From assembly GCA_029866325.1 (NCBI GenBank), contig JARWZO010000006.1, positions 1 to 64,000 on the forward strand: a stretch of DNA of 64,000 nucleotides, read 5' to 3'. The DNA comes from Fluviicola sp. Lineage in GTDB: Bacteria; Bacteroidota; Bacteroidia; Flavobacteriales_D; Crocinitomicaceae. Under the pieces are notes generated by a model that was given only the letters and a program-made list of their open reading frames with translations, made no database searches and was not told where the DNA came from. Below, one piece after another: positions 13,738 through 55,770 of the stretch; position 1 is the first letter of the stretch; every line of letters starts with the position of its first letter. The translations under genes were made by a program, and so were the position numbers.

Positions 13738-16700
13738 CTGTGTTTAAAAGTGTAAAAGCACTTTCCATCGTGCTAAAAAGATCATTAATCGTTTCGTTCG
13801 GTTTTTCTTCTTCAGTTATGCTATCACTTCCAATGTATTCGGATAAAGCACTGATATTGGGGAGTCCGAAAGCCACCAATAGTGTAATCTCTTTTTCAAA
13901 CCCCTTATTGACCGCGTTCAGCATTTTGATAAGGGTAATGGAGTTGCCACCCAAATCAAAAAAGTTGTCTTTTACGCCAATTTTTTCCTTTGGAAAACCG
14001 AGTATTTGACTCCAAATTTTAGTTAATTCAGCTTCAACAGCATTATTAGGAGCGACATATTTTTCGACAGTCGCCGTTTCCGTTTCACCTTGCAGGAGAA
14101 GTGCCTTTTTATTGATTTTACCATTGGCTGTAAGCGGGATTTCATTCACAAGAATAACATGATTCGGAATCATATAATTCGGAAGTTTGGCAGCCAAATA
14201 TGTCCGCACGGTTGAAGCATCGAAAGCATCATCAGAAACAACAAGATATGCAATCAATTGTTGGTCATCAGATGCAGTGATTCTTACGGCAACAACAGCA
14301 TCATTAATTGCCGGATGTTGTTTCAAAATATGTTCAATCTCACCCAATTCGATGCGGTAGCCATTCACCTTGACCTGATCATCAATTCGTCCAATCAGAT
14401 CCAGCTCTCCGTTTGGAAGCCATTTTGCAATATCACCGGTTTTATATATCCTACTTTCAAATCCTGTTTCAAACGTATGGGTAACAAAACGTTCATTTGT
14501 CAATTCCGGATCATTAAAATAACCACGGGCCAGACCATTACCGCCAATATAAAGCTCTCCCGGAATGCCAATCGGGCAAAGGTTCTTGTTAGAATCAAGA
14601 ATATATACCTGAGTGTTAAGGATTGGTTTTCCAATGGTTAAATCAGCGTTTAGATCTATTGTTTTACTACACGACCAGATGGTTGTTTCCGTAGGTCCGT
14701 ACATATTGTAGAGTGTAGCATCTGTTTTAGAAGCCAATTTACCGATCAAACTTGCAGGTAATTTTTCGCCCCCGATCAGAAGGTGTTTTAATGATTTCAG
14801 CAGTAATTGAGAATTCGGATCTTCGATCAACGCACTCAAATAAGAAGGTGTAATCTGCAGCGCTGTAATATCAGGTGGGTTCGAATCGTTTTCAGTCGCT
14901 TTAACTGTAAATTGCTTTCTGAAATTATTCAATTCATTGAGTCCTTCAAAGACTGTATCATCCGGAATTCCAAAGTCAATCAAACAAGCAATCTCTGTGA
15001 CCCCAATGATATGTAATTTTTCAACCGTTTCCCGGCAACTTTCATGGGTCCCCATCAACGCAGAGGTTTCCCAATATCTGTCAAAAGCAAGTTCGAGCAA
15101 AGAATCAAGTTGTCCGGCACTCAAATCTTTCAAATCTAGTTTCGGATCGTTCGTCAGATTACTTAACAAACTTGCACTGGAACTTAAATACTCTTTGAAA
15201 GGTTCCCTAACAGTTTTTTTTACCACTTCCAAATCCGATCCGATGTATGTGTGTAGCATCAATGCGACTTTTGCTTTACTTACATCGTGTCCGTTTTCTA
15301 TTAATGCTGTTTTATAAAGCTTAATATTTTTCTCGAGCACCTCTATTTCCTGACCAAGTAGATGCGTTAGAATATTTGCACCGATTCTTCCTGCATTTAT
15401 AAATGTTTCCGGATGTCCACCTGCTGTAACACTTATTGAAAGTTCATCCTGAATCGGTTTGGGGTAGATTCGAGTTTCCTTTTCTTGTTTTGCCCCATTT
15501 AACCGAACAAGTCCTTCACCTTTCCAAAGGGCTTTGAGCTCTTCGATCTGTTGAAACATGATGCGTTGTCGTTCTACATAATTTTCGGGCATCAAAACAA
15601 AATCATCTACATGCCATCCCGATGCTATTGATAAAGCGACTCTGCCATTTGAAAGATTATCAACAACTGACCATTCTTCAGCCACACGTACTACATCATG
15701 CAATGGTAAAACCACACTTCCCGATCGAATTTCAAGTCGTTTTGTGGTGGCTGCCAACGCGGCTCCGATTACGGCAGGATTCGGAAATATCCCTCCAAAT
15801 TCGTGAAAATGACGTTCAGGAGTCCACACCGCAGTAAAATCATTGTTATCAGCAAACTCAACCGACTTTAACAATAACCCGTATTTGTTCTCACTATTAG
15901 TTGTCTGACTCGAAAAATAAAACAAGCTGAAATCCATGACAACAGGTTCACCATTCAAATTTCTATCAAAGCTTGTTAGTTGTTGTTCATTACGGATGGT
16001 AACAGCCACACCTTTAGATAAGGTCCAAAATAATTCAAGTATAGAAATATCAAAAGAGATGGAGGTAACGGCTAAAAAATGATCTTTTGGGGTTAACGGA
16101 ACAATTTCATCTAATGCATGAACAAAATTGAACAAACTACGATGTTCAATCATCACACCTTTAGGAGTTCCGGTTGACCCTGAAGTATAAATCATGTATG
16201 CCAGTTGACCGGGCAAAATCGGCGTTAAAACAGCATTCACTCCTTCGTTAAAAATCTCCGCCCGATCTTTTTCTAAACGGATATACCGAACAGGCTCATT
16301 GACGTTCATTTTGGTGAAACCAATTTCATCACAGACAACAAAAGAAGCTTTCGTGTTTTCTAAGATGAAGGCGATTCTTTCTTCCGGATAATCAGGATCA
16401 ATTGGCACATAAGCTGCTCCGGCTTTTAAGATGCCCATCAAACCTACTACCATATCAATACTTCGCCTAGTGCAAATCGGGATCAGCGTTTCCGGCTGAA
16501 CTCCTTGCTTTTTTAAATAGCAGGCAAGCCTGGTGCTTCGGTAATCCAGATCTTCGAAAGTCAGCTTTTCGCCTCTACACCTTACTGCAACAGCTTCCGG
16601 TGTTTGCAGCGTTTGATCTCTTAATAGGTCAATAATCGTTTTCTCCGGTAATGCAACAGCGGAAGGATTAAAGTCAATCATTAAGGTCTTTCGCTCGTCT

Positions 16701-18253
16701 TTAGTAAGAAAATCGGCGTCGCATAAACGAATTTCAGGATTTGCTATAATTTCCCGAAACAACTGTTCCAAATGACCTAACATTCGTCGGGCCCGATCTG
16801 TAGTATATTGATTGGTATCGTATTCCAAACTTACCTGTAAATCCCGGTCGCTTTCGGTAAACGTAAATGTCAGATCATATTTGCTAAATACGCCTTCTCC
16901 ATCCTGGTAGGGATGAATCACCAAATCATTCGGTAATTGAATCGAACCGGTGTTTGAAGTATGACCGGTATTTTGTAAAATGACACTAACATCAAACAAC
17001 GGATTTCTACTTATATCCCGTTTTAGAGGTAGATTTCCAATTAGTTCATCAAACGGATACGACTGATGTTCGTATGCAAAAAGCAGTTCTTTTTTGACCA
17101 GATCAAACAACTCGATAAAACTTGCATCTGCCTCAAACTGCGCCCTTATTGGCAAGAGATTGACATAAAATCCGATTTGCGGTTCTAAGTCTACAAGAGA
17201 TCTGCCTGCAACAGGAGTTCCGAGAATAATATCTGTCTGATTACTATATCGGAATAACAGCGCATTAACACCTGCCAAAAGCGACATAAACATCGTTCCG
17301 TTGCGTGCAAAAGCAATTTTTTTAAGCCCTTCCGAAACGGAGGAATCAATGACGATTGTCAGTATTTTGCCCGCATAATTTTTGATTGCCGGACGCATAA
17401 AATCAGTAGGCAGTTCCAAAACCGGCAGTTCCCCCCTAAAGCGGTTTAACCAATATTCTTTTGATTGAGCTAGTTTTCCGCTTTTCAATTGAGATTGTTG
17501 CCAATAGGCATAATCTTTGTACTGTATATTGAGTGGTTTCAGCGGATTTTCACCCTTCTTACAAAAGGAGGTATAAAGTGTGAATAATTCCTGGAACAAT
17601 CGTTCCATCGACCAACCATCACTAATGATATGGTGAATGACAAAGCAGAAAAAATGCTGATCCGGGGCCGTTTGAATTAACTTTATTCTTAATAAAGGAC
17701 CTTCAGACAAATCAAATGCTTGTGTGATCTGCTGGTAAATATGTTGGTGTAAAACTTCTTCACTATTTTCATCTTGAAGATTCAGATAATCTATGTCAAT
17801 TGAAAAAACCTCATCCTCCAATACATATTGAAAAATATCGTCAGAAGCATCTTGCCTGAAAACGGTTCTTAATATTTCATGCCTGCTCACTAAAACTTTA
17901 AATGATTTTTCAAGGGCTTTCAGATCCAACGTACCTTCAAACCGATAGAAAACCGGAATGTTGTATGCCAAATTCCCTTCTTCTATTCTGCTAATAATCC
18001 AAAGTCTTCGTTGGGAAGATGAAAGCTCATAACCATCTGAAACGGGAACAGGTTTTATCGTTCTTTCTTCCTGACCGGTGGTTTGCTCAAAGCTGTTTTG
18101 TTTCAAAAACTCCTCGAGCTCTGCCTTTTTCTCTCTGATTTCATTCAGTAATTCAGAATCAATTTCAGTTGTCGCTGCCATTACCTTCAGGCGACCGTCT
18201 ACAATCTCTAACAAGATATGGGCAGCGCTCACCCTTTTTAATAAGTTCAGCAT
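13724..18253 (-). CDS. NRPS module TubC_N-C-A(interrupted by luciferase-like monooxygenase)-PCP; predicted Gly-activating
   Basis: HHIISDGWS; MIYTSGSTGTPKG; FDISILE / LQITPSY / LLIGGE / NMYGPTETTIW gives D-I-L-Q-L-G-M-I-W-K (Gly type); PCP DNFFDLGGNSITL. Confidence 0.93.
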   Translation of the reverse strand: MLNLLKRVSAAHILLEIVDGRLKVMAATTEIDSELLNEIREKKAELEEFLKQNSFEQTTGQEERTIKPVPVSDGYELSSSQRRLWIISRIEEGNLAYNIPVFYRFEGTLDLKALEKSFKVLVSRHEILRTVFRQDASDDIFQYVLEDEVFSIDIDYLNLQDENSEEVLHQHIYQQITQAFDLSEGPLLRIKLIQTAPDQHFFCFVIHHIISDGWSMERLFQELFTLYTSFCKKGENPLKPLNIQYKDYAYWQQSQLKSGKLAQSKEYWLNRFRGELPVLELPTDFMRPAIKNYAGKILTIVIDSSVSEGLKKIAFARNGTMFMSLLAGVNALLFRYSNQTDIILGTPVAGRSLVDLEPQIGFYVNLLPIRAQFEADASFIELFDLVKKELLFAYEHQSYPFDELIGNLPLKRDISRNPLFDVSVILQNTGHTSNTGSIQLPNDLVIHPYQDGEGVFSKYDLTFTFTESDRDLQVSLEYDTNQYTTDRARRMLGHLEQLFREIIANPEIRLCDADFLTKDERKTLMIDFNPSAVALPEKTIIDLLRDQTLQTPEAVAVRCRGEKLTFEDLDYRSTRLACYLKKQGVQPETLIPICTRRSIDMVVGLMGILKAGAAYVPIDPDYPEERIAFILENTKASFVVCDEIGFTKMNVNEPVRYIRLEKDRAEIFNEGVNAVLTPILPGQLAYMIYTSGSTGTPKGVMIEHRSLFNFVHALDEIVPLTPKDHFLAVTSISFDISILELFWTLSKGVAVTIRNEQQLTSFDRNLNGEPVVMDFSLFYFSSQTTNSENKYGLLLKSVEFADNNDFTAVWTPERHFHEFGGIFPNPAVIGAALAATTKRLEIRSGSVVLPLHDVVRVAEEWSVVDNLSNGRVALSIASGWHVDDFVLMPENYVERQRIMFQQIEELKALWKGEGLVRLNGAKQEKETRIYPKPIQDELSISVTAGGHPETFINAGRIGANILTHLLGQEIEVLEKNIKLYKTALIENGHDVSKAKVALMLHTYIGSDLEVVKKTVREPFKEYLSSSASLLSNLTNDPKLDLKDLSAGQLDSLLELAFDRYWETSALMGTHESCRETVEKLHIIGVTEIACLIDFGIPDDTVFEGLNELNNFRKQFTVKATENDSNPPDITALQITPSYLSALIEDPNSQLLLKSLKHLLIGGEKLPASLIGKLASKTDATLYNMYGPTETTIWSCSKTIDLNADLTIGKPILNTQVYILDSNKNLCPIGIPGELYIGGNGLARGYFNDPELTNERFVTHTFETGFESRIYKTGDIAKWLPNGELDLIGRIDDQVKVNGYRIELGEIEHILKQHPAINDAVVAVRITASDDQQLIAYLVVSDDAFDASTVRTYLAAKLPNYMIPNHVILVNEIPLTANGKINKKALLLQGETETATVEKYVAPNNAVEAELTKIWSQILGFPKEKIGVKDNFFDLGGNSITLIKMLNAVNKGFEKEITLLVAFGLPNISALSEYIGSDSITEEEKPNETINDLFSTMESAFTLLNTDEDE
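14909..15940 (-). other. Luciferase-like FMN-dependent monooxygenase (MupA/Atu3671-type) domain embedded between A4 and A5 of the A domain
   Basis: Residues ~772-1115: MDFSLFYFSSQ...FADNNDFTAVWTPERHFHEFGGIFPNPAVIGAALAATTKRLEIRSGSVVLPLHDVVRVAEEWSVVDNLSNGRVALSIASGWH... A domain resumes DITALQITPSYLSAL. Confidence 0.88.
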
Positions 18254-18608: not shown

Positions 18609-20693
18609 ATGGACTATCAAAATAATACAGAACCACTTTTAGAACAAGTAGAGCAGGAATATGATAGTTATAATTTAGAAGATCATCAAACATGGGAAGT
18701 TCTTTGTCAAAACCAAATTGATTACATTCAAAAAAGTGCGTCTCAGGAATTTCTGGATGGCTTTTCAAAACTTGATCTTGATCGAACGAATATCGCAAAG
18801 ATTGAAGAGTTAAGCCGTAATTTGGAATCTGTTTCCGGCTGGACTTTGGTACCTGTAACAGGATTATTACCCAATAGGGATTTTTTCTATTTATTGATCA
18901 ACAAAAAATATCCTGTCACAATACATATTCGAAAACCTTATGAAATCAATTTCAGTGAACAACCTGATATTTTTCATGATGTTTGCGGGCATTTACCGTT
19001 ATTGACAAATGAAAAATTCACCCGTTTTCTCACAGCCTATTGTATTGTTGCGCTCAAGTATATTCACAATGAAAAGGCGCTTGATTTATTGGGGAAATTA
19101 TACTGGTATACCTATGAGACAGGGTTGATTAAAAAAGATGGGGCTTATTTCCCGTATGGAGGTGCCATTATTACTTCTTCAGAAGAAATAGAAAATTTCA
19201 ACCGTTCTGAAATACCGAAACATACGTTCGATCTTCAGCACATTTTTCGTTCGGAATTTAGCCCTTACAGTTTACAAAAAGAGTACTTTGTCATTGAATC
19301 GTTTGATGATCTTTTTAACTGTATTGACGAAATAGAACCTACGTTGATTAACTACCTGAGAATTGTCAATGATGAACTTTTGATTGACGATTATTCATTA
19401 AACGAAACAATCGGACCACAGTTTAGAGATGTCATCGGTTTCCTCAATGATATGCAATACAAGTATCCTGAAGCCATTTCTTTTGTTTCAGGCCAGCCGG
19501 ATGAAACATTTTTTCAAATAGATACACAGTTATCAAGTATTGAATATTATGTGGATTATCTTATGCGTTCAACCGGTAAATCGAGAGAAGCGGTTTTGAA
19601 TAAAATTGGCCAATACAGTAAAACCAAAGGTATTGTCAACGATATTCTTGCAAATCATCTGAGTAAGGAAGAAAACATTAAAATCAATGGTGAACAAATT
19701 TTGATTACAGTTGGCGCTCAGGAAGCATTTGCTGTTATTGTGACCACACTTTGTAATCGAGAAAACGATGAGATTCTAATTGAAGACCCAAGCTACATTG
19801 GTTTAAGTTCGTATGCTCACGTTTTTGGGTATTCTATCAATGGTGTACAAACAGATGATGAGGGAATTGAAACAGAGAAATTGGAAGACACCATTCTCGA
19901 GAGAGAAGCTTTAGGAAAAAAAGTAAAGCTGGTTTATGTTATTCCCGATTATCAAAATCCTTCGGGTTTTTCAATGTCCATACTTCGTCGTCAGAAATTA
20001 CTGGATTTGGCTAAGCAATACAACTTTTTCATCGTTGAAGACAGCGTTTATAATAGCTTTACTTACTTGCAAAAAAAGAATCCAACGCTGAAATCCTTAG
20101 ACCGGTTTAATCGTGTAATCTATGTCGGTTCTTTCTCAAAATCATTGTTCCCGGGCTTGCGAATAGGAATGATTGTTGCCAACCAACAGTTAAAAGGTGC
20201 AGATGGAAATACAATCGATCTCATTGACCAAATGGCTAAAGTCAAAGTACAACTAACCAACAATACTTCTACTATTAGTCAGGCTATTTTAGGCGGCGTT
20301 TTACTCAGCCATCAAGGCAGTCTCAACGAATGGAATCAACCCAAATTTGATAGCTATAAAAATAAACGAGATTGCATTTTAAATAACCTAGACAAACATA
20401 TTGGAAAATTTAAACATGAGTGGGCTAAAGATATTAGCTGGAACAAACCGGATGGAGGGTTTTTCATTAAAATGAATTTGCCCTTTGAGGTGGATGACAC
20501 CTCGGTGGCAGAATGTGCTTCGGGGTTCAATATTATTATTTGTCCCATGCGTTATTTTTATTTAAACGATGGTGGTGAAAAAGAAATCAGAATCACCTTT
20601 TCAAACCTTTCGATCGATAAGATTGATGAAGGTATAAAACAATTGGCCTTATACTTGAAATCCAACATTAATCACAACAATTATTCAGTATGA
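18609..20693 (+). CDS. Fusion protein: biopterin-dependent aromatic amino acid hydroxylase-like N-terminal half + PLP-dependent class I/II aminotransferase C-terminal half
   Basis: N-half: EQPDIFHDVCGHLPLL (Fe ligands HxxxxH) and YWYTYETGLI (Glu ligand). C-half: GAQEAFAVIVTTL, DPSYIGL, VIPDYQNPSGFSMS, GSFSKSLFPGLRIG (PLP Lys). Confidence 0.85.
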   Translation: MDYQNNTEPLLEQVEQEYDSYNLEDHQTWEVLCQNQIDYIQKSASQEFLDGFSKLDLDRTNIAKIEELSRNLESVSGWTLVPVTGLLPNRDFFYLLINKKYPVTIHIRKPYEINFSEQPDIFHDVCGHLPLLTNEKFTRFLTAYCIVALKYIHNEKALDLLGKLYWYTYETGLIKKDGAYFPYGGAIITSSEEIENFNRSEIPKHTFDLQHIFRSEFSPYSLQKEYFVIESFDDLFNCIDEIEPTLINYLRIVNDELLIDDYSLNETIGPQFRDVIGFLNDMQYKYPEAISFVSGQPDETFFQIDTQLSSIEYYVDYLMRSTGKSREAVLNKIGQYSKTKGIVNDILANHLSKEENIKINGEQILITVGAQEAFAVIVTTLCNRENDEILIEDPSYIGLSSYAHVFGYSINGVQTDDEGIETEKLEDTILEREALGKKVKLVYVIPDYQNPSGFSMSILRRQKLLDLAKQYNFFIVEDSVYNSFTYLQKKNPTLKSLDRFNRVIYVGSFSKSLFPGLRIGMIVANQQLKGADGNTIDLIDQMAKVKVQLTNNTSTISQAILGGVLLSHQGSLNEWNQPKFDSYKNKRDCILNNLDKHIGKFKHEWAKDISWNKPDGGFFIKMNLPFEVDDTSVAECASGFNIIICPMRYFYLNDGGEKEIRITFSNLSIDKIDEGIKQLALYLKSNINHNNYSV

Positions 20694-41716: not shown

Positions 41717-43339
41717 TCAGATAATAAACACTTCATCTTTTTCGTATGCATAAAACAATTCCTTTTCACCGAATAATCGCTCTCCAATTATTCCTCTTTG
41801 GTTGCAGGAGTCAACAAGCATGTTCGATTGCACAATAGGATTCGATTCATCAGTGTATTTAATGCTACTAATAAATTCCAACCACGGTTCTTGCCCCATA
41901 GCATAGACATATACTTCGCGCGGGTGAAAAATATTGATGAGATGCATTCCTTTCTCAAAATTAGATCCAGAAAGCCTTCTGGAATTGTCCTTGTCGCGCG
42001 CCAAATTTTCGCTTAACAGCGGTCCGTATAACCAGGACAATGGCGCTCCATCGCATTCCATTCCAAGGAAAATGACATCAATATCGCCCACAAAACGGTG
42101 AACATGTTGGTAGAGTTTCGGTTCAATAATTTTTGAATCGGCTACAAATAACAATGTAAATTGCTCAATAGCAATATGAAAACACGATTTGGATTTTACA
42201 TTCAAATCACTGTGCTCCCCGGTAAATGGAATACCCGTTATCGTACAATTTTTGAAACAGATCTCTTCCATTTCATTGATTTCAATCACATTATCAAAAC
42301 CAATGTGCTTGAACATTAATTTCAAATTAGGGTCTTGCAGAGATCCATTTGTGGTTGATGGAACAATAATGTTTTTGATTTTATGGCGAAGAGGTAATAA
42401 GGTTTCGAGTAAAATATGGTCTTGATGATTGTGCGTTATGAGTACATAATCAATTGTATCCGGAAGATCAATATCCGAAAAATGAGCGATATCCGAATCA
42501 TATCCATAATAGCTAATGAGCGGATCAACCAATATGGAAACATCCTTTGTTTCAATGAGAATACAAGCGTGGCCGAAATAGCGCATTCTTACTTTATCAC
42601 CATCATATTTGTTATAAACAGTTGGTTTTTCCTCCGTAAAAAACGTATCAAACAGTGTGCGTTTCTCACTGGGAATATTTAGCTTCTTCGCAATTTCTTC
42701 AATTGATCCAGGGGTTCTTTTCATTTTGCTCAATGCATCTATTCCATCAAAAGAAAATGGAATAGACAAATGGAGTACATGCGGCTCATCTAACTTAGGT
42801 GTACTCAAACAAAATGGGCGTTGGTCATTCTCAGTAATCCAAAGCGCAATACTTTGGGAAGAGGTATTGTAGAATTCACTTTTATACAATAGCGGTTCAA
42901 AAAAACGAAACGACGGATGGTTATTTAAATCGTAAACCAACTCAACATACCCTTTCAGTAAATCGGGAACTTTACCGTATAGTTCTTCCATTGAATAACC
43001 TGTAGCATTTGCCTTCAGCATCTTATCCAAGTCAACAATTGCTACTGACAATTCAATGAGCTTCGATTGATTTTGAAGCGTTTCTTCCCGCAGTTTCTTT
43101 ATTTCATCCAGGCGTTGAACTTTAAAATCCATAAATGGCCCTCCAAGCATTTTCGGGTTTTTTACGGCCGATTCATGAATATCAGGAGCCAAAAGATATG
43201 ATTCCATGATTTTCAAATGCCGATTTATGATGTTCATGGCTGCAGTTGCAGGCGATACAAGATGCGACCATGCATACCATTTTTCAATCAACGGTTCAAT
43301 AACCAGGTTCGGTTTTAAGTAAAATTCTTTATCGCTCAT
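41717..43339 (-). CDS. CmlA-type diiron, metallo-beta-lactamase-fold aminoacyl-PCP beta-hydroxylase
   Basis: Characteristic N-terminus NLVIEPLIEKWYAWSHLVSPATAAMNIINRHLKIMESYL and MLGGPFM; MBL motif VLITHNHQDHILLETLLPLRH (HxHxDH) after YFGHACILIET; downstream GEHSDL, VADSK. Confidence 0.82.
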   Translation of the reverse strand: MSDKEFYLKPNLVIEPLIEKWYAWSHLVSPATAAMNIINRHLKIMESYLLAPDIHESAVKNPKMLGGPFMDFKVQRLDEIKKLREETLQNQSKLIELSVAIVDLDKMLKANATGYSMEELYGKVPDLLKGYVELVYDLNNHPSFRFFEPLLYKSEFYNTSSQSIALWITENDQRPFCLSTPKLDEPHVLHLSIPFSFDGIDALSKMKRTPGSIEEIAKKLNIPSEKRTLFDTFFTEEKPTVYNKYDGDKVRMRYFGHACILIETKDVSILVDPLISYYGYDSDIAHFSDIDLPDTIDYVLITHNHQDHILLETLLPLRHKIKNIIVPSTTNGSLQDPNLKLMFKHIGFDNVIEINEMEEICFKNCTITGIPFTGEHSDLNVKSKSCFHIAIEQFTLLFVADSKIIEPKLYQHVHRFVGDIDVIFLGMECDGAPLSWLYGPLLSENLARDKDNSRRLSGSNFEKGMHLINIFHPREVYVYAMGQEPWLEFISSIKYTDESNPIVQSNMLVDSCNQRGIIGERLFGEKELFYAYEKDEVFII

Positions 43340-46192: not shown

Positions 46193-46830
46193 TGTACTTC
46201 CATTTTTAACGGTTTATATTCCGTAATAACGAGTTTTTCGATGGTATTTTTAACACAGATACAACTGGCATAATCATGATGAATTTCAATCGGATGAAGA
46301 ATCCATTTTCCCAATTGATCATGGTAGACAGTGTCTATTGCGCAATAACGATCTCCACTTGTTATCCCAATTCCCATTGCTTTCATCAACGCTTCTTTTC
46401 GCACCCAAATGTCATAGAACGTTTGATGAGGGTTGTCCGACGAAACAATAGCCTGTTGCTCTTTTGAATGAAGGCAACCCATGATATCCTGGTAGTTAAG
46501 CTCGTTCTTTTGTTCTATATCAACTCCCAATTCCTGTTCTCCATAAGCAAACAACACCAGATTGCCGGAATGGGAAATATTGAACTCCATCCATTCTTTG
46601 ATAAACGGTTTTTTATACTTGTGAATATCCCATTTAGTGATGAGTTCCTCTTTTCCAAACTGCTTCAACGTATCTAAAAGCATCAGTCTGGCCAAAAGCC
46701 TTCCTTTTCTATCGGAATCGTTTTTGTATCTCATTACCTCGACTTGCATGGATACAGGCAGTTGCATCAGGTAAAAACTAAATTCCTGATCCGCAATGAT
46801 TTTAGTATCGCTATAAAGTAACGTGATCAT
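46189..46830 (-). CDS. Sfp-type 4'-phosphopantetheinyl transferase
   Basis: KKPFIKEWMEFNISHSGNLVLFA, LGVDIEQ, FYDIWVRKEALMKAMGIGI motifs. ATGA-type overlap with the penicillin acylase gene. Confidence 0.88.
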   Translation of the reverse strand: MITLLYSDTKIIADQEFSFYLMQLPVSMQVEVMRYKNDSDRKGRLLARLMLLDTLKQFGKEELITKWDIHKYKKPFIKEWMEFNISHSGNLVLFAYGEQELGVDIEQKNELNYQDIMGCLHSKEQQAIVSSDNPHQTFYDIWVRKEALMKAMGIGITSGDRYCAIDTVYHDQLGKWILHPIEIHHDYASCICVKNTIEKLVITEYKPLKMEVQ

Positions 46831-47506
46831 AGCGTGTTTTTATAATGTTCGCAATTTTGGCCGCGTGGTTGTTGATGAAAAAGTGATCTCCTTCTATAAT
46901 CTCGTAATCAAAATCTGAACGGGTGTATCGCGACCAATCCGTGATTTCATCAATACGACCTTCATCACTTCCCATCATTGCATAAATAGGTGTCGCTATT
47001 GGCTGATCTTCAGCTAACTCATTGCGTTCGGCGATTTCAAAATCAGCTCGTAATATAGGTTCGAAGAAATCAAAAAGCTCCTGGTTATTAAGAAGTTCAT
47101 CCGACACACCTCCCAATTTTTTAAGCTCATTCACAAAATCTTCGTGATTCATCAAGTATCGGTTTCTTGAATCCTGAACACCTGGACCGGGATTTCCACT
47201 AACAAAAATACTCTGAGGTGCATCTTGTTTTTGTTCCATAAGTCCTGCAACCCGAAGGGCCAGACTTGCCCCCATACTATGTCCAAAAATGATGTAGTTG
47301 GATTTATTTCTTTTGAAACGCAGCTGGTCATACACATCAAGCGCAGCGGCATCAAAATCACTGATGAGCTTCTCGTTAATACGCTTTCCTCTTCCAGGGA
47401 GTTCAAGCGAAATAATGTCAAACTCTTTTAGAAAAGAGTACATAAAACGAAAGGAATAAGTATTTCCTCCTGCAAAGTGTATAAAAAACAACTGTGTCTT
47501 TTCCAT
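46811..47506 (-). CDS. Type II thioesterase (alpha/beta hydrolase)
   Basis: FFIHFAGGNTYSFRFM, LELPGRGKRINE, YIIFGHSMGASLALRVA (GHSMG), C-terminal EGDHFFIN. Confidence 0.88.
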   Translation of the reverse strand: MEKTQLFFIHFAGGNTYSFRFMYSFLKEFDIISLELPGRGKRINEKLISDFDAAALDVYDQLRFKRNKSNYIIFGHSMGASLALRVAGLMEQKQDAPQSIFVSGNPGPGVQDSRNRYLMNHEDFVNELKKLGGVSDELLNNQELFDFFEPILRADFEIAERNELAEDQPIATPIYAMMGSDEGRIDEITDWSRYTRSDFDYEIIEGDHFFINNHAAKIANIIKTRYDHVTL

Positions 47507-47525: not shown

Positions 47526-49169
47526 TTAAGAATTTTTTCTGAAGAACGAAATTTCTGATGTTTCTTCCGATAATTTTCCTTCACACATCTTAAACAACCT
47601 ATCGGCACATTCATAATAGTGATCATCGTGTGTAACGGCTAACACCGTAAACCCCCGTTCCTTGAGCAATGGTAAAATCACTCTGTAAAATTTATTCCTG
47701 AAGTTTGGATCCTGATCGGCAGCCCACTCGTCTAAAACGATAATGGGTTTTTCTTCTACTATTGCTAAAATAAGAGCCAAACGCTTTCGCTGTCCGGTTG
47801 AAAGATCCGTCGTACTGAGTTTATTTCCATTTAGTTCTACCTTACCATCCAGTTCAAATAAAGTAAGATAGCTGTTCCAACTTTCCTTATCCGGCGTTTT
47901 GTAGAGTTCATCGAATAAATAAAAATCATTGAACACGACTGAAAAGGCGGTTCTATAAAAATTATAATTCGTTTCATCAATAACTTCGTTGTTGAGCTTC
48001 AAAACCCCCGAGGAGTGTTTATACAACCCCAATAATGTATTAATGAATGTTGTTTTACCGCTACCATTCCCTCCATAAATGAAAACAATTTCCCCTTTTT
48101 TCAATTCAAAATCAATCTCCTTTATCCCAAAAGTCTCAGACTCCTTAGTATAGAAAAAATCAATTTTTTCAGCAGAAACTCTTTCAAACTCAGACATGCT
48201 TATTGCTTTTTCAGCTGGGTCATTGGAGTATCGGGCATTTTTGAGATCGTTTTGAAGAACAATGAGTTTGGAAGATGCAACCATTGCTTTTGAGATAGTT
48301 GGCAAAATGGCCATTATAGACTGAATGGATGCTAAAAAGTAAAGGAGTGTAAAAACAAAATTAATGATTCGGGTATTCTGAATTTCAAGTAAAACACTGA
48401 ATATCAATACAGTAACACTCATCAGGACATAAAAAAGAATATGTCCTATAACCTGACTGTTAATAAACCGGGTATAGGCAGTCAGGTTGCTTTTAATTGC
48501 TTGATTAGCAATTTCATTGATTTGGTTTTCATAGATATGTTGTCCTTTCGAGGGCTCCATATGAATCTCTTTAAAACCATTCAAAATATCATTTATCTTT
48601 CCTTGAAACTTGACTTCTAAATTGAGTGATGTTTCAAAATTTCGCTCAATTTTCCTGGAACCAAGTTGATAAATGGTTATGCCGACAATTGCAAAACCAA
48701 TCGTTATAAAGCAAAGAGAAGGTGAGATTACAGCCATGAATATCAGACAGGCCACCGCCAGAACGGTTTCTGTTGTAAAATTAATCACTTGCATTGAAGC
48801 TTCGGTGATCGCATAAACGTTGTTTGTAATAGCTGTTAATATCTTGGACTTTTGTCCATAGAACTGCTGATAATCGGATTTTAACACCGTTGAAATAACA
48901 TCTTTTCTTAGTTTCCAAAGCAAAACCTGAGTATACTTAATGATGATCGTTGATAAGATCTTTCGACTCCAAACAAACAGTAAAATGACAAAGGCAAAAA
49001 TGACGATGTATTCCTGACTGATATCAGTATAAGCACCTTTCATTAGTAGATCCATCACCCCGGTTAAAAGAGTGATGAACAAAAAGCTGCATAGTCCGGA
49101 AAATATTCCGAGTGCAACATATTTGATTAGTCCCCACCTGCCTATTAACGAAAGTATTACTCTTAACAT
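47526..49169 (-). CDS. Cyclic-peptide-type ABC exporter (SyrD/PvdE-like fused permease-ATPase)
   Basis: N-terminal TM helices; Walker A FIYGGNGSGKTTFINTLLGLY, signature LSTGQRKRLALILAI, Walker B PIIVLDEWAADQDP, VTHDDHYYECADR. Confidence 0.85.
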   Translation of the reverse strand: MLRVILSLIGRWGLIKYVALGIFSGLCSFLFITLLTGVMDLLMKGAYTDISQEYIVIFAFVILLFVWSRKILSTIIIKYTQVLLWKLRKDVISTVLKSDYQQFYGQKSKILTAITNNVYAITEASMQVINFTTETVLAVACLIFMAVISPSLCFITIGFAIVGITIYQLGSRKIERNFETSLNLEVKFQGKINDILNGFKEIHMEPSKGQHIYENQINEIANQAIKSNLTAYTRFINSQVIGHILFYVLMSVTVLIFSVLLEIQNTRIINFVFTLLYFLASIQSIMAILPTISKAMVASSKLIVLQNDLKNARYSNDPAEKAISMSEFERVSAEKIDFFYTKESETFGIKEIDFELKKGEIVFIYGGNGSGKTTFINTLLGLYKHSSGVLKLNNEVIDETNYNFYRTAFSVVFNDFYLFDELYKTPDKESWNSYLTLFELDGKVELNGNKLSTTDLSTGQRKRLALILAIVEEKPIIVLDEWAADQDPNFRNKFYRVILPLLKERGFTVLAVTHDDHYYECADRLFKMCEGKLSEETSEISFFRKNS

Positions 49170-49222: not shown

Positions 49223-50146
49223 TTATTTTCTTACATCCAACTTTAATACATGGGTTGCATTTTTATAAAAAACAGCTTCTTTCTCCGCACTGGTGATTGA
49301 GGTTAAACCGGCAATTTTTTGAACCAATTGCTTCTGTGTTGCGCTCAATAAAAACATGGGGAAATCTGTGCCGAATAGAATTCTATCTGGGCAACTATCA
49401 CAAAACTCCCTAAATTGAGTATTCAATTCCTCTTCCGTCGTAATGAAACGCTGGAAAGTTGAAATATCGAAGAAAATATTTGTCCGTTGCTTTACGGTAT
49501 CTATGGTCGTTTTACAATCTCTTGCTCCACCATGGCCAAGAACAAATTTTATTTTTTTAAACTCATTCGCCACTTTTAAAATGCTTGACGGGTAGTTTTT
49601 TTCAACCCCTAAAAGCCTTAGTGAAGGCCCTGTATGTGTTAAAACGGGCAATTCAAATTCATTGCAAATTTCGTAAAGTGGATAAAGTCCGGGATCATCT
49701 AATTCGAAACCGCACGGGGGATACAATTTTAATCCCTTAAAACCATACTCTTTGATCGATTTTTCAAATAGTTCGACACCTTTAAGCCCTCTTCGCGGAT
49801 CCATACCGCCAAAGACAATAAATCTATCCGGGTTAGCATCTAGCACTTCTTTATGCAATTCGAAGATCGATTCAAGTGCCAATTCAGGTTCTCCGAGCGC
49901 TACTCCAAAGTCAGCAATGAGTAAAACAGATAAATCAATCGAAGCCTGATCCATTTTTTCCAAAAATCCCGATCCTAAATGATCGGATAATCCGGCATTC
50001 AGAAGGTGCTGAACAACTTTCTTTTCGCTTTCACTTTTAGTCTCAAAAGAATCAATTACCTCATTGGTAAAGCTAGGGGGAAAGATCTTTTTGCTTGCTA
50101 AATGACTATGAAAATCTATGACCATTCTTTCTGAATTTATACCCAA
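49223..50146 (-). CDS. Amidohydrolase-2 family metal-dependent hydrolase/decarboxylase (ACMSD-like TIM barrel)
   Basis: MVIDFHSHLA, GGMDPRRGLKGVELFEKSIKEYGFKGLKLYPP, LTHTGPS, FVLGHGGARD, RILFGTDFPMF. Start may be the internal ATG at 50125. Confidence 0.8.
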   Translation of the reverse strand: MGINSERMVIDFHSHLASKKIFPPSFTNEVIDSFETKSESEKKVVQHLLNAGLSDHLGSGFLEKMDQASIDLSVLLIADFGVALGEPELALESIFELHKEVLDANPDRFIVFGGMDPRRGLKGVELFEKSIKEYGFKGLKLYPPCGFELDDPGLYPLYEICNEFELPVLTHTGPSLRLLGVEKNYPSSILKVANEFKKIKFVLGHGGARDCKTTIDTVKQRTNIFFDISTFQRFITTEEELNTQFREFCDSCPDRILFGTDFPMFLLSATQKQLVQKIAGLTSITSAEKEAVFYKNATHVLKLDVRK

Positions 50147-50586
50147 TTATCTAGTTGATCTAACCTGTATGCTTCAATATCCAACAGCGCTCCGTCTAAC
50201 AGGTATTGAATCAATGCTTCTTTTTCATAAAACACAACACTCAAGTCCCAAATACATAAACCGGAGGCCGTATTGAGATCAACGGGGAGTAGTAAATGAC
50301 TTTCAGAAGGAAGAGATTTATAGACCTTCGTCATTAATTCATTTTTATTCACCCAGTAACCAAAAACAACAAAGTTCACATCTAATCCCGCATGTATTAT
50401 GATAAAGCCAGTATTGTACATTGGTTTAGCTTCGCCAGAAAAGAGAAGGTCATTCGTTAAGCTTTCAGCACTTTTTATTAACTCATTTAATTGTACATTT
50501 TCATTCGCAGAAATGGTGTATCGCTTCCAAAAAAAATCTCCTTTCTGTATCGGAGCATAGGGGGATATTTTGCGTTGTTGATACAT
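50137..50586 (-). CDS. Hypothetical protein (149 aa)
   Basis: Tightly packed between neighbours (10-bp overlap with the downstream gene, 3 bp after the upstream gene); no family recognised. Confidence 0.6.
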   Translation of the reverse strand: MYQQRKISPYAPIQKGDFFWKRYTISANENVQLNELIKSAESLTNDLLFSGEAKPMYNTGFIIIHAGLDVNFVVFGYWVNKNELMTKVYKSLPSESHLLLPVDLNTASGLCIWDLSVVFYEKEALIQYLLDGALLDIEAYRLDQLDNWV

Positions 50587-50589: not shown

Positions 50590-51960
50590 TCAATTGAAAG
50601 CGTACATGTTTTCCATTTTTCGGTGCAGATTTTTTTTCAACGACTCAATATCTTTATACATATAAACACCTTTATAATGCTTATCTCCCACACTCGAATA
50701 GCACGGTAGTTCACCAAAAGTTTCAAACCCTAAATGCTTCCAAAGCAACTCTACTTTACTCCCTGACCTTACCGTAAGCGTAAGATGCTTTATTCCTAAT
50801 TCATCACATTTTTCAAACAAATGCTCTATTACTTTTATCGAAACTTCTTTTCCCCTAATTGACGGATTAATCATTAATGTAGAAACTTCGGCTCTAAGTT
50901 TATAGGTCTCAACATACGAGTGATACAAAATAAACTGACCTAAATATTCACCGTTACTTTCAATGACCAATAAATGCTTTGTTCCAAAATCAATATCGTT
51001 CTTAAGTACCTTCATATAAGGATGGTCTGTTCTCATAAGACTTAAGAAACCATTGTTATTATCGCTTTTGATAATCACATTCATCATATGAGTCAATTTA
51101 TCAATTTCAGTATCATCAATAGTTGATAACCATTTGAAATTCAATTTGTCAGTTACGATCGTTTTATTGATTAGAAATAAGGTCGAGATTGTAAAACCTT
51201 TATCAGCGATTTGAGTTCCAAGTTGAATAAATCCCGTTGTTACATTATTGGGCGTTGGCTCGTATACCAGCTTTCTTAATCCATAAGATGTTCTGCAGAG
51301 CAGGCGTGCATTCTTATTTGTTTTGCGAATATTCTGCAAAATGCCCACTTTAGGTTTTGCCAAAAGTGCATTCAAAATTACATCGTAATGGCTTAAATCA
51401 AAGGTACAACCATTGCCTACGTGAATACGAATCTTATCCTGCAATCCGATTTTTTCTAAAATAGTATTTGAAATATCGGCTGCATCCTTATCAATTTCAA
51501 GACAATCAATTACCTTTCCGGTATAAAGGTGCAAGAAAATGGCCGTAATCGGAAAAGGGCCACTTCCAATGAACAATACGGATTCGAATGAATGTTCTTC
51601 CATCAATTCCAATTCATTCTTTACTAAGTCTTTAAAACGATCGTACAATAAATAATCTTCCACTTTTGCTTCGTCTCTTAGCAATGCTTCTGCAAAGCGC
51701 GATTCATGAATGGTTTCCCACCTGCAATAATTATCATTGATCTGCTTTACAACGTCGCTATCAAGACTTTCGAAGTAGTTAATACATTCTTGTTGGTTAT
51801 GATCATCAAACTCAAAAATCAACTGTTCAAGTTGTTGAATATTGTGATCAAGCAATTCGAAAGGCAAATCTTCAGCGACAGTGCTTTTAACAAGAGAATC
51901 GATAGTAGCTAAGTCCATTGAATTTTCAGTGCTGTTAGATGAGTTAGTTAAATCTCTCAT
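50590..51960 (-). CDS. Nicotianamine-synthase-like SAM enzyme fused to a C-terminal GNAT acetyltransferase domain
   Basis: FESVLFIGSGPFPITAIFL (NAS SGPxPxT), CLEIDKDAADISNTILEKIGLQDKIRIHVGNG, YDVILNALLAKPKVG, ARLLCRTSYGLRKLVYEPT resemble plant/bacterial NAS. C-term LRAEVSTLMINPSIRGKEVSIKVIEHLFEKCDELGIKHLTLTV is GNAT-like. Confidence 0.68.
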   Translation of the reverse strand: MRDLTNSSNSTENSMDLATIDSLVKSTVAEDLPFELLDHNIQQLEQLIFEFDDHNQQECINYFESLDSDVVKQINDNYCRWETIHESRFAEALLRDEAKVEDYLLYDRFKDLVKNELELMEEHSFESVLFIGSGPFPITAIFLHLYTGKVIDCLEIDKDAADISNTILEKIGLQDKIRIHVGNGCTFDLSHYDVILNALLAKPKVGILQNIRKTNKNARLLCRTSYGLRKLVYEPTPNNVTTGFIQLGTQIADKGFTISTLFLINKTIVTDKLNFKWLSTIDDTEIDKLTHMMNVIIKSDNNNGFLSLMRTDHPYMKVLKNDIDFGTKHLLVIESNGEYLGQFILYHSYVETYKLRAEVSTLMINPSIRGKEVSIKVIEHLFEKCDELGIKHLTLTVRSGSKVELLWKHLGFETFGELPCYSSVGDKHYKGVYMYKDIESLKKNLHRKMENMYAFN

Positions 51961-52076: not shown

Positions 52077-52799
52077 TTAAAGTACGGCTTCTTTTTGCTT
52101 TTTCAATTCACGGTAACTTCTCAAGACACCATCGTAGTGGTCATTAAAACGATCACATGTGTCATGAATCGCCTGAATAGCTTCATCTTGCATTTGTTTC
52201 GTGGTGCAAACATCAGCAACGCAATTTAATCCGTCTTTTACGTGGTGAACATCTTCCTCGGCATGAACTTTGAAGAAAATCATATCATCTACACTAATTC
52301 CAAAACCGTTTGCGATTGCCTCACGACGCATAGCCCCGGCTCTATCTTCAAGATTTTGACCTTCACTGGCAATCATCACAGCGGCACAAGCCCGGTGGAA
52401 TTGAGTCGGATCTTCAATAAGTCGGAAACGGAAATCAATTAACTCTTTAGTCTCAGGATTAACTTCAACCGAATTAAGTTCCTCCAATGAAATTCCTAAC
52501 GCTCCTGTAAAACGATGCAATAGCTCCAGATGGCCATCTGTTTTACTCATAGCACCGGTTTCTTCTTCGAATACGTTGTAAGCAAATTTCTTTCTTGAGT
52601 CAGCCAGAGGACATCTGTAATATAAACCACCTACATAAATTGCGAAAACTTTTGTAAGCTGATATCCTTGTTTTACCATGATGCGCAAAAGATCAGGATC
52701 TTTTTCTTCAAAAAGAGCATTTACAATTGGATGATCTTCTTTAATTCTTTGGTGTAAATTACTTTCTAATAGGTCGTAAAAAGCCTGTCTTTCTAACAT
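52077..52799 (-). CDS. Heme-oxygenase-like diiron oxidase/oxygenase (HDO; PqqC/TenA fold)
   Basis: All-helical 240-aa protein; ligand-like motifs FEEETGAMSKTDGHLELLHRF, MIASEGQ, FFKVHAEEDVHHVKDG typical of HDO/iron-containing redox enzymes. Confidence 0.75.
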   Translation of the reverse strand: MLERQAFYDLLESNLHQRIKEDHPIVNALFEEKDPDLLRIMVKQGYQLTKVFAIYVGGLYYRCPLADSRKKFAYNVFEEETGAMSKTDGHLELLHRFTGALGISLEELNSVEVNPETKELIDFRFRLIEDPTQFHRACAAVMIASEGQNLEDRAGAMRREAIANGFGISVDDMIFFKVHAEEDVHHVKDGLNCVADVCTTKQMQDEAIQAIHDTCDRFNDHYDGVLRSYRELKKQKEAVL

Positions 52800-52964: not shown

Positions 52965-53216
52965 TTATTTTGAATATTTTGAGTAAAGAGCTGTTTTCAA
53001 ATCAAGTACTGATCGAATTTCTGTCAATTCCGTATCGCTAAACTCAATTATGCTAACTTTTAGCTCATCTATGACATTGGTGAAAAAAGAAATTAGCAAC
53101 ATCGAATTCATCCCCAAATCTTCAAGAAATAATGCGTTATCAGCAATCTTATGCGCGTTTTTTTTACCGATAGCAGTAATCAAATGTTTTTGGAGAATTT
53201 TGTCTACAGTTTTCAT
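52965..53216 (-). CDS. Stand-alone acyl carrier protein
   Basis: 83 aa, acidic, helical; LFLEDLGMNSMLLISFFTNVID with Ser in the phosphopantetheine position. Confidence 0.75.
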   Translation of the reverse strand: MKTVDKILQKHLITAIGKKNAHKIADNALFLEDLGMNSMLLISFFTNVIDELKVSIIEFSDTELTEIRSVLDLKTALYSKYSK

Positions 53217-53251: not shown

Positions 53252-54826
53252 TTAGTACAACGCCTCAATTTCGTTTTGAAGTTGTTCAACGACGCTTTTT
53301 CTATTCAATTTTAATGAATTTGTAAGCATTTTGTTTTGAATAGTGAAGGGTTGATCGTAAAAATATATGTTGAGAATACGTTCGTCGACACTTAACTTTT
53401 CATTGATTTTTTTAAGTGTAACCCGAATCTCTTCTTGTGTTATATCGGGTGTTTTTGGAACAACAACCGCAACCAAATTGGGTTTGTTATCACCATATAC
53501 AAGTGCGTTGGCAACCAGTCCGGTCTCAATTAATAATTCTTCCAATCCGCCTGGATGAATTTTCTTGCCCGAGGAAAGAACAATTAGGTCCTTTATTCGT
53601 CCGTTAATAAAGAGAAAACCGTCTTGATCGAAATAACCTATATCTCCGGTGGCAACACAATTTGGTTCAATATATGTTTTATCACTTTCTTCTTTCGGCA
53701 TTTTGTAATAATGCTGGTTTGCGATCTTATCACTTTTTACCAAAATCTCTCCAATATCTGAAATAATTACCTCCTTTCCCGGAAAAGGCTTCCCCACACT
53801 ACCTAATTTAACTATGTCGGGACTGTTCAATGTAATCATACCACCTATTTCGCTCATTCCGTAACCCTCATAGAGTGTGATTCCCATTTTCTCATAGAAC
53901 AATAGTGTTCCTTTTGTAATCGGCGCAGAGCCAGTCAGCAAATACCGAATATTCCCCCCCCAAGCTTTTACAAATGGCGCAAATTTATGGCCGAACAAAA
54001 ATCCGAGACCCAGTGACTTTAGTAATAGATAGCTCTTAAAAACAACTGAATAAAGTACTTTTGATTTGATCTTTTCCAAAAATTTATTTCTGAACGTTTC
54101 AAAGAAATAAGGCACTCCAATGATGATGGATGGCTTGTCGTTTTGGATAGAATGAAACACCAGCTCTAATGGGGTAATAATGACGCTGAAATCCAATAAG
54201 ATTGCAGAATAAACATATACCCTTTCTAAATAAATAGGAAGTGGTAAAAACACCAAGAAACGATCTTCATTTCTGAAGTTGAACAATCCTTGCGATTCGT
54301 TTATGAGATGATCAAAACTTTTCTTTTTGACCTCAATGAACTTGGATTTTCCCAGTGTTCCGGATGTGAAAATAAATGTAAACACATCTTCGGGCTGATA
54401 CTGATAAGGAACAAATTCATCATTCGCGAGATTTTGTTGATTTGATAAGTGAATTACCTCATGAAACGGTAGTACTTTCTCATGACCCAATTCTGCTATT
54501 TCAGGCAAGTTTGTGAGCAACAAATCCGATTCAAAATAATCAAAAAGTTCCTCGAGGTCGTACGTTTTTCCAACTTCCAGTGGAATTGTTATGATCCCGC
54601 TAATTATGCACGCCAAATCAATTACTACCCAGTCGTAACTGTTTTTCCCTAAGACAATCACCCTTGATCGCGGGGCGACATTTTTGGATTTAAGAAAGTT
54701 AGCGACTTTTATCACGTCATGGTAAACCTCTTTAAATGGAACAATGTGCTTTTTTCCTTCTTTGTAATATTCCAATAAATTAGAATGGGAATTGCTGAGT
54801 TTTTCCGCTAGATTTACTAAGTCCAT
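53252..54826 (-). CDS. AMP-dependent acyl-CoA/acyl-ACP ligase
   Basis: FTFIFTSGTLGKSKFIEV, YEGYGMSEIGGMITLN, ATGDIGYFDQDGFLFINGRIKDLIVLSSGKKIHP. Start chosen at the ATG at 54826 (MDLVNLAEKLS); the track start at 54874 overlaps the upstream gene. Confidence 0.85.
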   Translation of the reverse strand: MDLVNLAEKLSNSHSNLLEYYKEGKKHIVPFKEVYHDVIKVANFLKSKNVAPRSRVIVLGKNSYDWVVIDLACIISGIITIPLEVGKTYDLEELFDYFESDLLLTNLPEIAELGHEKVLPFHEVIHLSNQQNLANDEFVPYQYQPEDVFTFIFTSGTLGKSKFIEVKKKSFDHLINESQGLFNFRNEDRFLVFLPLPIYLERVYVYSAILLDFSVIITPLELVFHSIQNDKPSIIIGVPYFFETFRNKFLEKIKSKVLYSVVFKSYLLLKSLGLGFLFGHKFAPFVKAWGGNIRYLLTGSAPITKGTLLFYEKMGITLYEGYGMSEIGGMITLNSPDIVKLGSVGKPFPGKEVIISDIGEILVKSDKIANQHYYKMPKEESDKTYIEPNCVATGDIGYFDQDGFLFINGRIKDLIVLSSGKKIHPGGLEELLIETGLVANALVYGDNKPNLVAVVVPKTPDITQEEIRVTLKKINEKLSVDERILNIYFYDQPFTIQNKMLTNSLKLNRKSVVEQLQNEIEALY

Positions 54827-54831
54827 AATTG

Positions 54832-55770
54832 TTAATTGACTGTTATTAACGAGGAAACATAAGAACCGGCCCACCCCATATTCAGCGCGAGCATCGTTTC
54901 TCCGGATTTTAATTTCCCTTCATCTAAAATGTCTTTCAGATTAATAATAAAATCAACACTATCTACATGTCCTGATCTTGAAATGTTTTGTGTAAATATT
55001 TTACGGGTATCGATCCCCATTCCCATCGCCACTTTAGACAATAGCATGATATTGGCATTTTGTGGAATGACACATACCAAAGAATCAACAGGCACACTAT
55101 TGTTCTCTAAAAGTCTTTTCACTCCGGCAGTCATATACTTATAGTGCAGCAACGAATTATCCTTATTCATATCCACTTTGTAAAGCGAGCCATTGGATAA
55201 TTTTACCTGACTTTGAATCGAACAGATTCCCGGATTTCCAGACAATAGGACAATTCCGGCTCCGTCGCTTAGAATTCCATAAGCTCCAAGGACCCTGTCG
55301 TTTGGATTTTCTGTTTTGTTAACTGCTACAATGAGGATGTTGCGCATTGAGCTTTGCATTGAATTAATAAAATCCCAGATAACAGGAACATTCGCACAAT
55401 GATTTCCGGATATGTTCATCACATTGGCGTTTGTCATTTTATGTTCCTGTTGCAAACACTTTACAAAGCTCTCACTCGTATTCTGATTTCCTTCCTGACA
55501 AGTAACAATTAAATCAATATCAGCCGGTTTTATTTCGGTTTCATTGAACATTTTAGTCAGCAATCCATTAAGCATTTCTACCTCCGAAACACCTGTTTCC
55601 ACCAACACCTTTTCCTGTTCTAAAATATCTTTTGTGAACATCAAATAATCCGCTTTGGTTTCAAAAACGGGTGGTATAACATGTTCATCGACTTGATCAA
55701 CTAATTCTTTTACCGAAAGAATCGTTTCGGGCAAATAGTAGTCTACGTATTGTAAATTGAAGTTATTCAT
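54832..55770 (-). CDS. KAS III (FabH)-like ketosynthase/acyltransferase with altered triad
   Basis: NISGNHCANVPVIWDF (Cys), LGAYGILSDGAGIVLLS, VIPQNANIMLLSKVAMGMGI (His of PHQAN replaced), SRSGHVDSVDFIINL (Asn of GNTS replaced), MLALNMGWAGSYVSSLI. Confidence 0.8.
   Translation of the reverse strand: MNNFNLQYVDYYLPETILSVKELVDQVDEHVIPPVFETKADYLMFTKDILEQEKVLVETGVSEVEMLNGLLTKMFNETEIKPADIDLIVTCQEGNQNTSESFVKCLQQEHKMTNANVMNISGNHCANVPVIWDFINSMQSSMRNILIVAVNKTENPNDRVLGAYGILSDGAGIVLLSGNPGICSIQSQVKLSNGSLYKVDMNKDNSLLHYKYMTAGVKRLLENNSVPVDSLVCVIPQNANIMLLSKVAMGMGIDTRKIFTQNISRSGHVDSVDFIINLKDILDEGKLKSGETMLALNMGWAGSYVSSLITVN

What the first reader, a model, noticed from the sequence alone, without database searches (positions are those of the whole stretch)
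50590..51960. Nicotianamine-synthase-like domain fused to GNAT inside an NRPS/PKS cluster
SGPFPIT, the YDVILNALLAKP and CRTSYGLRKLVYEP segments match NAS signatures. NAS enzymes transfer aminobutyrate from SAM. The GNAT fusion and the NRPS/PKS context are unfamiliar to me; it may supply a SAM-derived non-proteinogenic unit (opine/metallophore type, or another SAM-cyclising reaction).
Basis: partly seen in the sequence, partly recalled or inferred. Interest (0 to 1): 0.75.

Follow-up and report, generated by a model that had tools for sequence, protein, structure and literature searches.

The report
NAS–GNAT fusion in conserved peptide-antibiotic gene module
This bacterium carries a two-part enzyme that probably builds an unusual amino acid from the cell's methyl donor (SAM) and then caps it; the enzyme belongs to an undescribed seven-to-eight-gene set that recurs in distantly related bacteria next to peptide/polyketide assembly lines, so it may be the source of a new building block.

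Summary
In detail: window 50590-51960 (-) encodes one 456-residue protein with a nicotianamine-synthase (NAS) domain (PF03059, 51.8 bits, cut-off 27.1) and a C-terminal GNAT domain, inside an NRPS/PKS operon. Its predicted structure matches MtNAS best (TM 0.85), then CntL; the GNAT half matches tabtoxin-resistance protein. The fusion is real: it recurs in Chitinophagales, Fulvivirga and Acidobacteriaceae. NAS and GNAT are adjacent separate genes in a planctomycete and separate genes of one cluster in gammaproteobacteria. Where contigs are long enough the module also holds a haem-oxygenase-like di-iron oxidase (HDO), amidohydrolase, FadD-like AMP ligase, carrier protein and degenerate KASIII, often a small orphan protein. 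These NAS domains form their own clade (100/96), apart from opine-type and archaeal NAS. They keep the catalytic Glu (E86 = MtNAS E81) but replace the catalytic Tyr by Phe (F109 = Y107). The opine-metallophore reading is unsupported. [quoted passage not shown] Only the anatomy is shown; substrate and product are unknown.

The parts
50590..51960 (-). NAS-GNAT fusion protein, 456 aa
   Evidence: full-length homologues L017 55%, L018 49%, L019 30% identity
51157..51861 (-). NAS domain, residues about 34-268 (N-terminal helical part plus Rossmann SAM-binding part)
   Evidence: PF03059; MtNAS TMt up to 0.85; tree clade 100/96
51703..51705 (-). E86, equivalent of catalytic MtNAS Glu81
   Evidence: 82 of 83 aligned NAS, the other a gap; role of Glu81 from PMC10491745
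51634..51636 (-). F109, at the place of catalytic MtNAS Tyr107 (Tyr to Phe in 9 of 10 of this clade, Leu in X. albilineans)
   Evidence: AtNAS1 Y106F is inactive (PMC10248798)
50626..51153 (-). GNAT domain, residues about 270-445; a separate gene in gammaproteobacterial and planctomycete clusters
   Evidence: L021:13469-14002, L025:6102-6626; L020, L126, L130, L134
54832..55770 (-). Degenerate KASIII-like protein: Cys kept, catalytic His replaced (Gln/Thr), catalytic Asn replaced by a conserved His
   Evidence: PF08541; alignments
53252..54874 (-). FadD-like AMP ligase (AMP-binding plus AMP-binding_C_3)
   Evidence: same domains in L021 and L025 ligases
52965..53216 (-). Stand-alone acyl carrier protein (LEDLGMNS motif)
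   Evidence: (weak), NCBIfam ACP, equivalents in the other clusters
52077..52799 (-). HDO, haem-oxygenase-like di-iron oxidase; EEETG/H90/E146/H179/D183/H186 metal-ligand pattern invariant
   Evidence: PF14518 62.9 bits; alignment A7; nearest solved relatives are CADD/4-aminobenzoate synthases
50137..50586 (-). P149, small conserved orphan protein, no Pfam or NCBIfam match
   Evidence: homologues in L017, L021, L130, L134
49223..50146 (-). AmdH, PF04909 amidohydrolase_2
   Evidence: 96.1 bits; present in every cluster except the contig-end L020 and X. albilineans
47526..49169 (-). Cyclic-peptide-type export ABC transporter
   Evidence: TIGR01194 301.6 bits, over cut-off
46811..47506 (-). Type II thioesterase
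   Evidence: PF00975
46189..46830 (-). 4'-phosphopantetheinyl transferase
   Evidence: PF01648
43769..46192 (-). Penicillin-acylase-family Ntn hydrolase, possible product deacylase
   Evidence: PF01804 618 bits; closest solved D-succinylase, penicillin/cephalosporin acylases, PvdQ weakly
41717..43339 (-). CmlA-like di-iron beta-hydroxylase
   Evidence: PF18456 308.6 bits
22708..41686 (-). NRPS (3 C, 3 A, 3 PCP) and PKS-NRPS; downstream NRPS/PKS genes continue to position 1

Best explanation
The protein performs the first two steps of a conserved pathway that makes a non-proteinogenic amino-acid building block for NRPS/PKS assembly lines. Step 1 (inferred from family, fold and retained catalytic Glu): the NAS domain transfers the 3-amino-3-carboxypropyl (2-aminobutyrate) group of SAM to an amine, releasing MTA, with a changed active site (Tyr107 to Phe) that suggests an acceptor different from the Glu or D-His used by MtNAS and CntL. 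Step 2 (inferred): the GNAT domain N-acylates the product, a masking or self-protection step in the manner of tabtoxin or phosphinothricin acetyltransferases. Step 3 (inferred): the FadD-like ligase loads the masked acid on the stand-alone ACP, the HDO oxidises it, the KASIII-like Cys protein transfers it to the assembly line, and the amidohydrolase and/or the outer hydrolase (penicillin acylase here; M28 peptidase or S12-peptidase-ABC in relatives) remove the mask. Shown: the anatomy, the fusion, the co-conservation and the residue changes. Not shown: any substrate, product or activity.
For: NAS over cut-off and MtNAS/CntL best by sequence and fold; catalytic Glu invariant. NAS and GNAT are fused in 4 loci from two phyla, adjacent separate genes in a planctomycete (L020), and separate genes of one cluster in gammaproteobacteria (L021, L025, L133/L134). 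The module NAS-GNAT-HDO-amidohydrolase-AMP ligase-ACP-KASIII (with P149 in 5 clusters) recurs next to NRPS/PKS genes in Bacteroidota and Pseudomonadota, and its core (HDO, plus amidohydrolase in one) in Acidobacteriota and Planctomycetota, where contigs are short. HDO metal-ligand pattern is invariant. KASIII keeps Cys but has lost the His/Asn decarboxylation pair, which suggests acyl transfer. The AMP ligases are of long-chain acyl type (AMP-binding_C_3), consistent with an amino-masked acid. X. albilineans places two NAS genes next to an L-amino-acid ligase, again as if the NAS product were an amino acid to be ligated.
Against: The Tyr107 equivalent is Phe, and Y106F kills plant AtNAS1 (PMC10248798), so classical activity cannot be assumed, although S. 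aureus CntL appears to have Ile there in the alignments used and is active. The GNAT acetyl-CoA loop is degenerate in Bacteroidota (RGKEVS in place of Q/RxxGxG/A), so it may not use acetyl-CoA. The order of steps and the role of each enzyme are inference. The A-domain codes extracted show no shared unusual specificity. The AMP ligase, ACP and KASIII could instead supply a fatty-acyl starter unrelated to the NAS product.
Confidence: 0.55

Rival explanations
1. Azetidine-2-carboxylate (AZE) unit: the NAS domain cyclises SAM intramolecularly to AZE with MTA release, and the GNAT domain is an AZE N-acetyltransferase that protects the producer.
For: Plant NAS itself forms an azetidine ring (PMC10491745); AZE synthase clusters with NRPSs often carry N-acetyltransferases proposed to detoxify AZE, and some carry ATP-grasp or class I tRNA ligases (PMC11794875), which parallels GNAT here, the L-amino-acid ligase in X. 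albilineans and the LeuRS-like gene in L020. Loss of the Tyr that deprotonates an external amine would fit an intramolecular reaction.
Against: No AZE synthase appears among the sequence hits in the PDB. The NAS-type helical N-terminal domain and the catalytic Glu are retained. It does not explain HDO, ligase, ACP and KASIII. No Pro-like A-domain code was recognised among those extracted.
Confidence: 0.15
2. Different SAM chemistry, or loss of NAS catalysis: Phe109 and the altered pocket make the domain use another nucleophile (for example a thioester-bound or oxidised amine) or only bind SAM.
For: Clade-wide Tyr to Phe/Leu, separate branch.
Against: Catalytic Glu and SAM-binding GSGPxP motif conserved; CntL lacks Tyr at the aligned place yet is an aminobutyrate transferase.
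Confidence: 0.13
3. Opine-type metallophore enzyme (CntL-like) in a siderophore or zincophore pathway.
For: NAS family; weak CntL match.
Against: NCBIfam CntL score 31.9 against a cut-off of 350; no CntM-like opine dehydrogenase or CntA-F importer in the Pfam scans of the window operon, both present beside the Paenibacillus opine NAS; separate clade.
Confidence: 0.04
4. Ordinary SAM methyltransferase.
For: Class I Rossmann fold.
Against: MtNAS and CntL are the top structural matches of this half and no methyltransferase family passes its cut-off.
Confidence: 0.03

Closest known systems
Archaeal thermonicotianamine synthase MtNAS (PDB 3FPE-3FPJ)
   Same: Two-part fold (TMt 0.82-0.85), SAM-binding motif, catalytic Glu81 equivalent
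   Different: About 30% identity; Tyr107 replaced by Phe; fused to GNAT; in an NRPS/PKS module
CntL / opine-metallophore NAS-like enzymes
   Same: NAS family, bacterial, catalytic Glu
   Different: Fails the CntL equivalog cut-off, separate clade from Paenibacillus opine-type NAS, no opine dehydrogenase or importer
AzeJ / VioH azetidine-2-carboxylate synthases
   Same: SAM-derived amino acid for NRPS, N-acetyltransferases often nearby (PMC11794875)
   Different: No sequence match found; NAS-type helical domain is present here
Tabtoxin-resistance and phosphinothricin N-acetyltransferases
   Same: Best fold and sequence match of the GNAT half
   Different: Fused to NAS and encoded in a biosynthetic operon; acetyl-CoA loop degenerate in Bacteroidota
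ACP-tethered amino-acid tailoring (coronamic acid CmaD/CmaE type, from memory)
   Same: Stand-alone activation, carrier protein, oxygenase and acyl transferase logic
   Different: Here the oxidase is an HDO and the transferase KASIII-like; not tested

Membership tests
Nicotianamine synthase superfamily (PF03059) | Score over the curated Pfam cut-off | tested here: met
   51.8 bits vs 27.1
Nicotianamine synthase superfamily (PF03059) | NAS two-part fold | tested here: met
   MtNAS TMt up to 0.85, rmsd 2.3 A
Nicotianamine synthase superfamily (PF03059) | Catalytic Glu (MtNAS E81) | tested here: met
   E86, 82 of 83 aligned sequences, the other a gap
Nicotianamine synthase superfamily (PF03059) | Catalytic Tyr (MtNAS Y107, AtNAS1 Y106) | tested here: not met
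   Phe109; whole clade Phe or Leu. Not universal in the superfamily: CntL has Ile at the aligned place
Nicotianamine synthase superfamily (PF03059) | Aminobutyrate transfer from SAM with MTA release | not testable with these tools
   needs protein assay
CntL / opine metallophore synthase | CntL equivalog score | tested here: not met
   31.9 bits vs 350
CntL / opine metallophore synthase | Adjacent opine dehydrogenase (CntM) and importer | tested here: not met
   none in the Pfam scans of the window genes; present in the Paenibacillus control
AZE synthase (AzeJ/VioH) | Sequence similarity to AzeJ/VioH | tested here: inconclusive
   no such entry among PDB sequence hits, but AzeJ and VioH sequences were not compared directly
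AZE synthase (AzeJ/VioH) | SAM cyclisation to AZE | not testable with these tools
   needs assay
GNAT N-acetyltransferase | GNAT fold / Pfam cut-off | tested here: met
   PF00583 24.5 vs 20.7; 1ghe TMt 0.82
GNAT N-acetyltransferase | Q/RxxGxG/A acetyl-CoA loop | tested here: inconclusive
   window RGKEVS, Acidobacteriaceae RGGGLA
HDO (gene 52077-52799) | Three His / three carboxylate metal ligands | tested here: met
   EEETG (E78-E80), H90, E146, H179, D183, H186 invariant in 7 homologues; assigned to ligands by pattern, not by structure

The most novel reading that the evidence does not exclude
A third biochemical class of NAS enzymes, with the catalytic Tyr replaced by Phe, that together with a GNAT, an HDO, a ligase/ACP/KASIII-like set and an amidohydrolase makes a previously undescribed, oxidised, SAM-derived amino acid; the module has spread between phyla among NRPS/PKS clusters, several of which also carry different hydrolases that may release the active product.
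Probability: 0.5. Interest if true: 0.8.

Novelty: new variant of a known kind. Interest (0 to 1): 0.62.

Why it matters
NAS enzymes are known for metal chelators. A conserved NAS-containing module in peptide/polyketide clusters of two phyla, with core pieces in two more, points to an unknown building block and a new use of SAM's aminobutyrate group. It gives a searchable signature (NAS+GNAT+HDO+PF04909) for finding the compounds, and a natural Tyr-to-Phe experiment on the NAS mechanism.

Tried and rejected
Close-protein scan of genome contigs found nothing; an alignment query was needed. Searches of the window's family and of sampled order and phylum genomes found no other full NAS of this kind, so the module looks sporadic there, perhaps horizontally acquired (not tested further). 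P149 fold prediction failed (pLDDT 44). A-domain codes gave mostly Gly/Ser/Thr/Asn/Ala-like codes by my own reading and no shared unusual one (home-made motif extraction, several codes incomplete). A second, diverged LeuRS next to NAS-GNAT-HDO in the planctomycete suggested a LeuRS target, but the other ten genomes with a clade member show no second full LeuRS gene, so this was not adopted. Literature searches for NAS with HDO, GNAT fusion or NRPS found no description. Methyltransferase and opine readings rejected as above.

Full report
Check of the observation. The ORF 50590-51960 (-) is a single 456-residue protein. Pfam gives NAS (PF03059) at 51.8 bits over a cut-off of 27.1, and GNAT just over its cut-off. 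By sequence the closest solved structures are the archaeal MtNAS entries (3e-22), then CntL (0.0025), and for the C-terminal half the tabtoxin-resistance acetyltransferase. The AlphaFold2 model is confident (pLDDT 88.7), and Foldseek ranks MtNAS first (TMt up to 0.85), then CntL, and 1ghe for the GNAT part.

Surroundings. The gene lies in a same-strand run: KASIII-like, AMP ligase, ACP, HDO, NAS-GNAT, P149, amidohydrolase, peptide-export ABC, thioesterase, PPTase, penicillin acylase, CmlA-type hydroxylase, then NRPS and PKS-NRPS genes, with further NRPS/PKS genes to the left edge of the contig. Gaps between neighbours are mostly short or overlapping, so an operon is likely.

Relatives. A close-protein scan found nothing; an alignment-based scan of 85,462 genomes found full-length fusions in a Chitinophagales MAG (55%), Fulvivirga kasyanovii (49%) and an Acidobacteriaceae MAG (30%), a NAS/GNAT pair in a Planctomycetota MAG, and NAS-only relatives in Rhodanobacter, Lysobacter, Tahibacter, Steroidobacter and Xanthomonas albilineans. 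The Chitinophagales and Fulvivirga loci keep the same gene order from KASIII to the amidohydrolase (HDO 87% and 75% identical; P149 not found in Fulvivirga). In Rhodanobacter and Steroidobacter the GNAT is a separate gene of the same cluster. In another genome of the Rhodanobacter family (L133/L134) the order is NRPS, NAS, AMP ligase, ACP, amidohydrolase, GNAT, HDO, KASIII, P149, then an M28 peptidase. In Tahibacter the module lies on the same contig as NAS, 67 kb away across NRPS genes, and in Lysobacter on another contig, so there the link to NAS is not proven. In L020 GNAT is a separate ORF about 40 bases after NAS, followed directly by HDO. An ACP was found between the ligase and the amidohydrolase in the five gammaproteobacterial clusters read. 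X. albilineans lacks this HDO by search; there two NAS genes sit beside an L-amino-acid ligase and efflux genes.

Clade and catalytic residues. In a tree of 83 NAS domains the ten sequences above (window included, L134 not) form one clade (100/96), sister to a mixed group from candidate phyla and uncultured bacteria, apart from Paenibacillus opine-type and methanogen NAS. Glu86 aligns with MtNAS Glu81: in methanogen NAS the spacing between this Glu and the Tyr is 26 residues, as between 81 and 107. It is present in 82 of 83. MtNAS Tyr107 aligns without a gap to Phe109; nine of the ten clade members have Phe and X. albilineans Leu. Glu81 and Tyr107 are proposed to deprotonate the acceptor amine (PMC10491745), and AtNAS1 E77Q and Y106F are inactive (PMC10248798). 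S. aureus CntL appears to have Ile at that place, so the change does not by itself mean inactivity, but it suggests a different acceptor.

Other parts. HDO homologues share an invariant ligand pattern and are nearest to CADD/4-aminobenzoate synthases; HDOs do N-oxygenation, C-C cleavage, desaturation and azetidine formation (PMC13108848), so its reaction cannot be guessed. The KASIII keeps Cys but replaces His by Gln/Thr and Asn by an invariant His. The AMP ligases carry the AMP-binding_C_3 domain. Different hydrolases accompany different clusters: penicillin acylase here, a class-C-beta-lactamase-type peptidase fused to an ABC exporter in Fulvivirga, and M28 peptidases in Lysobacter, Tahibacter and L134. 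From memory, peptidase-ABC fusions of the ZmaM type activate acylated prodrugs; the Fulvivirga A domain nearby has an Asn-like code, in keeping with that.

Interpretation and limits. The module most likely makes and handles an unusual amino acid for the assembly line, beginning with SAM aminobutyrate transfer and N-acylation. The steps after that are a proposal. No product of any of these clusters was found in the papers searched; that library lacks most subscription journals, so an existing description cannot be excluded. Membership: it is a NAS-superfamily protein by score, fold and Glu, with one catalytic residue not met; it is not a CntL-type metallophore enzyme by the tests made; whether it cyclises SAM like an AZE synthase is open.

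Noticed in passing
L020:3172-5400 (planctomycete): Diverged second leucyl-tRNA-synthetase-like gene directly after NAS, GNAT and HDO; a housekeeping LeuRS exists elsewhere in that genome.
   Followed up: partly
L026:9770-12941 (X. albilineans): Two tandem NAS genes beside an L-amino-acid ligase (LAL), outer-membrane efflux, MFS and HlyD genes: a possible small NAS-derived dipeptide pathway.
   Followed up: partly
window 18609-20693 (+): Biopterin-dependent aromatic amino-acid hydroxylase fused to a class I/II aminotransferase, next to a PhyH-type dioxygenase.
   Followed up: no
window 13724-18253 (-): NRPS A domain interrupted by a luciferase-like monooxygenase.
   Followed up: no
L018:6845-9910 (Fulvivirga): Class-C-beta-lactamase-type peptidase fused to a peptide-export ABC transporter, like prodrug-activating peptidases.
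   Followed up: partly
L015:12001-12618 (P. phymatum pBPHY02): Stand-alone GNAT related to this GNAT domain, the next listed gene after ectB (diaminobutyrate transaminase) in a hydrogenase region.
   Followed up: partly
window 50137-50586 (-): P149 family has no known domain and a failed fold prediction but is conserved in 5 clusters.
   Followed up: partly
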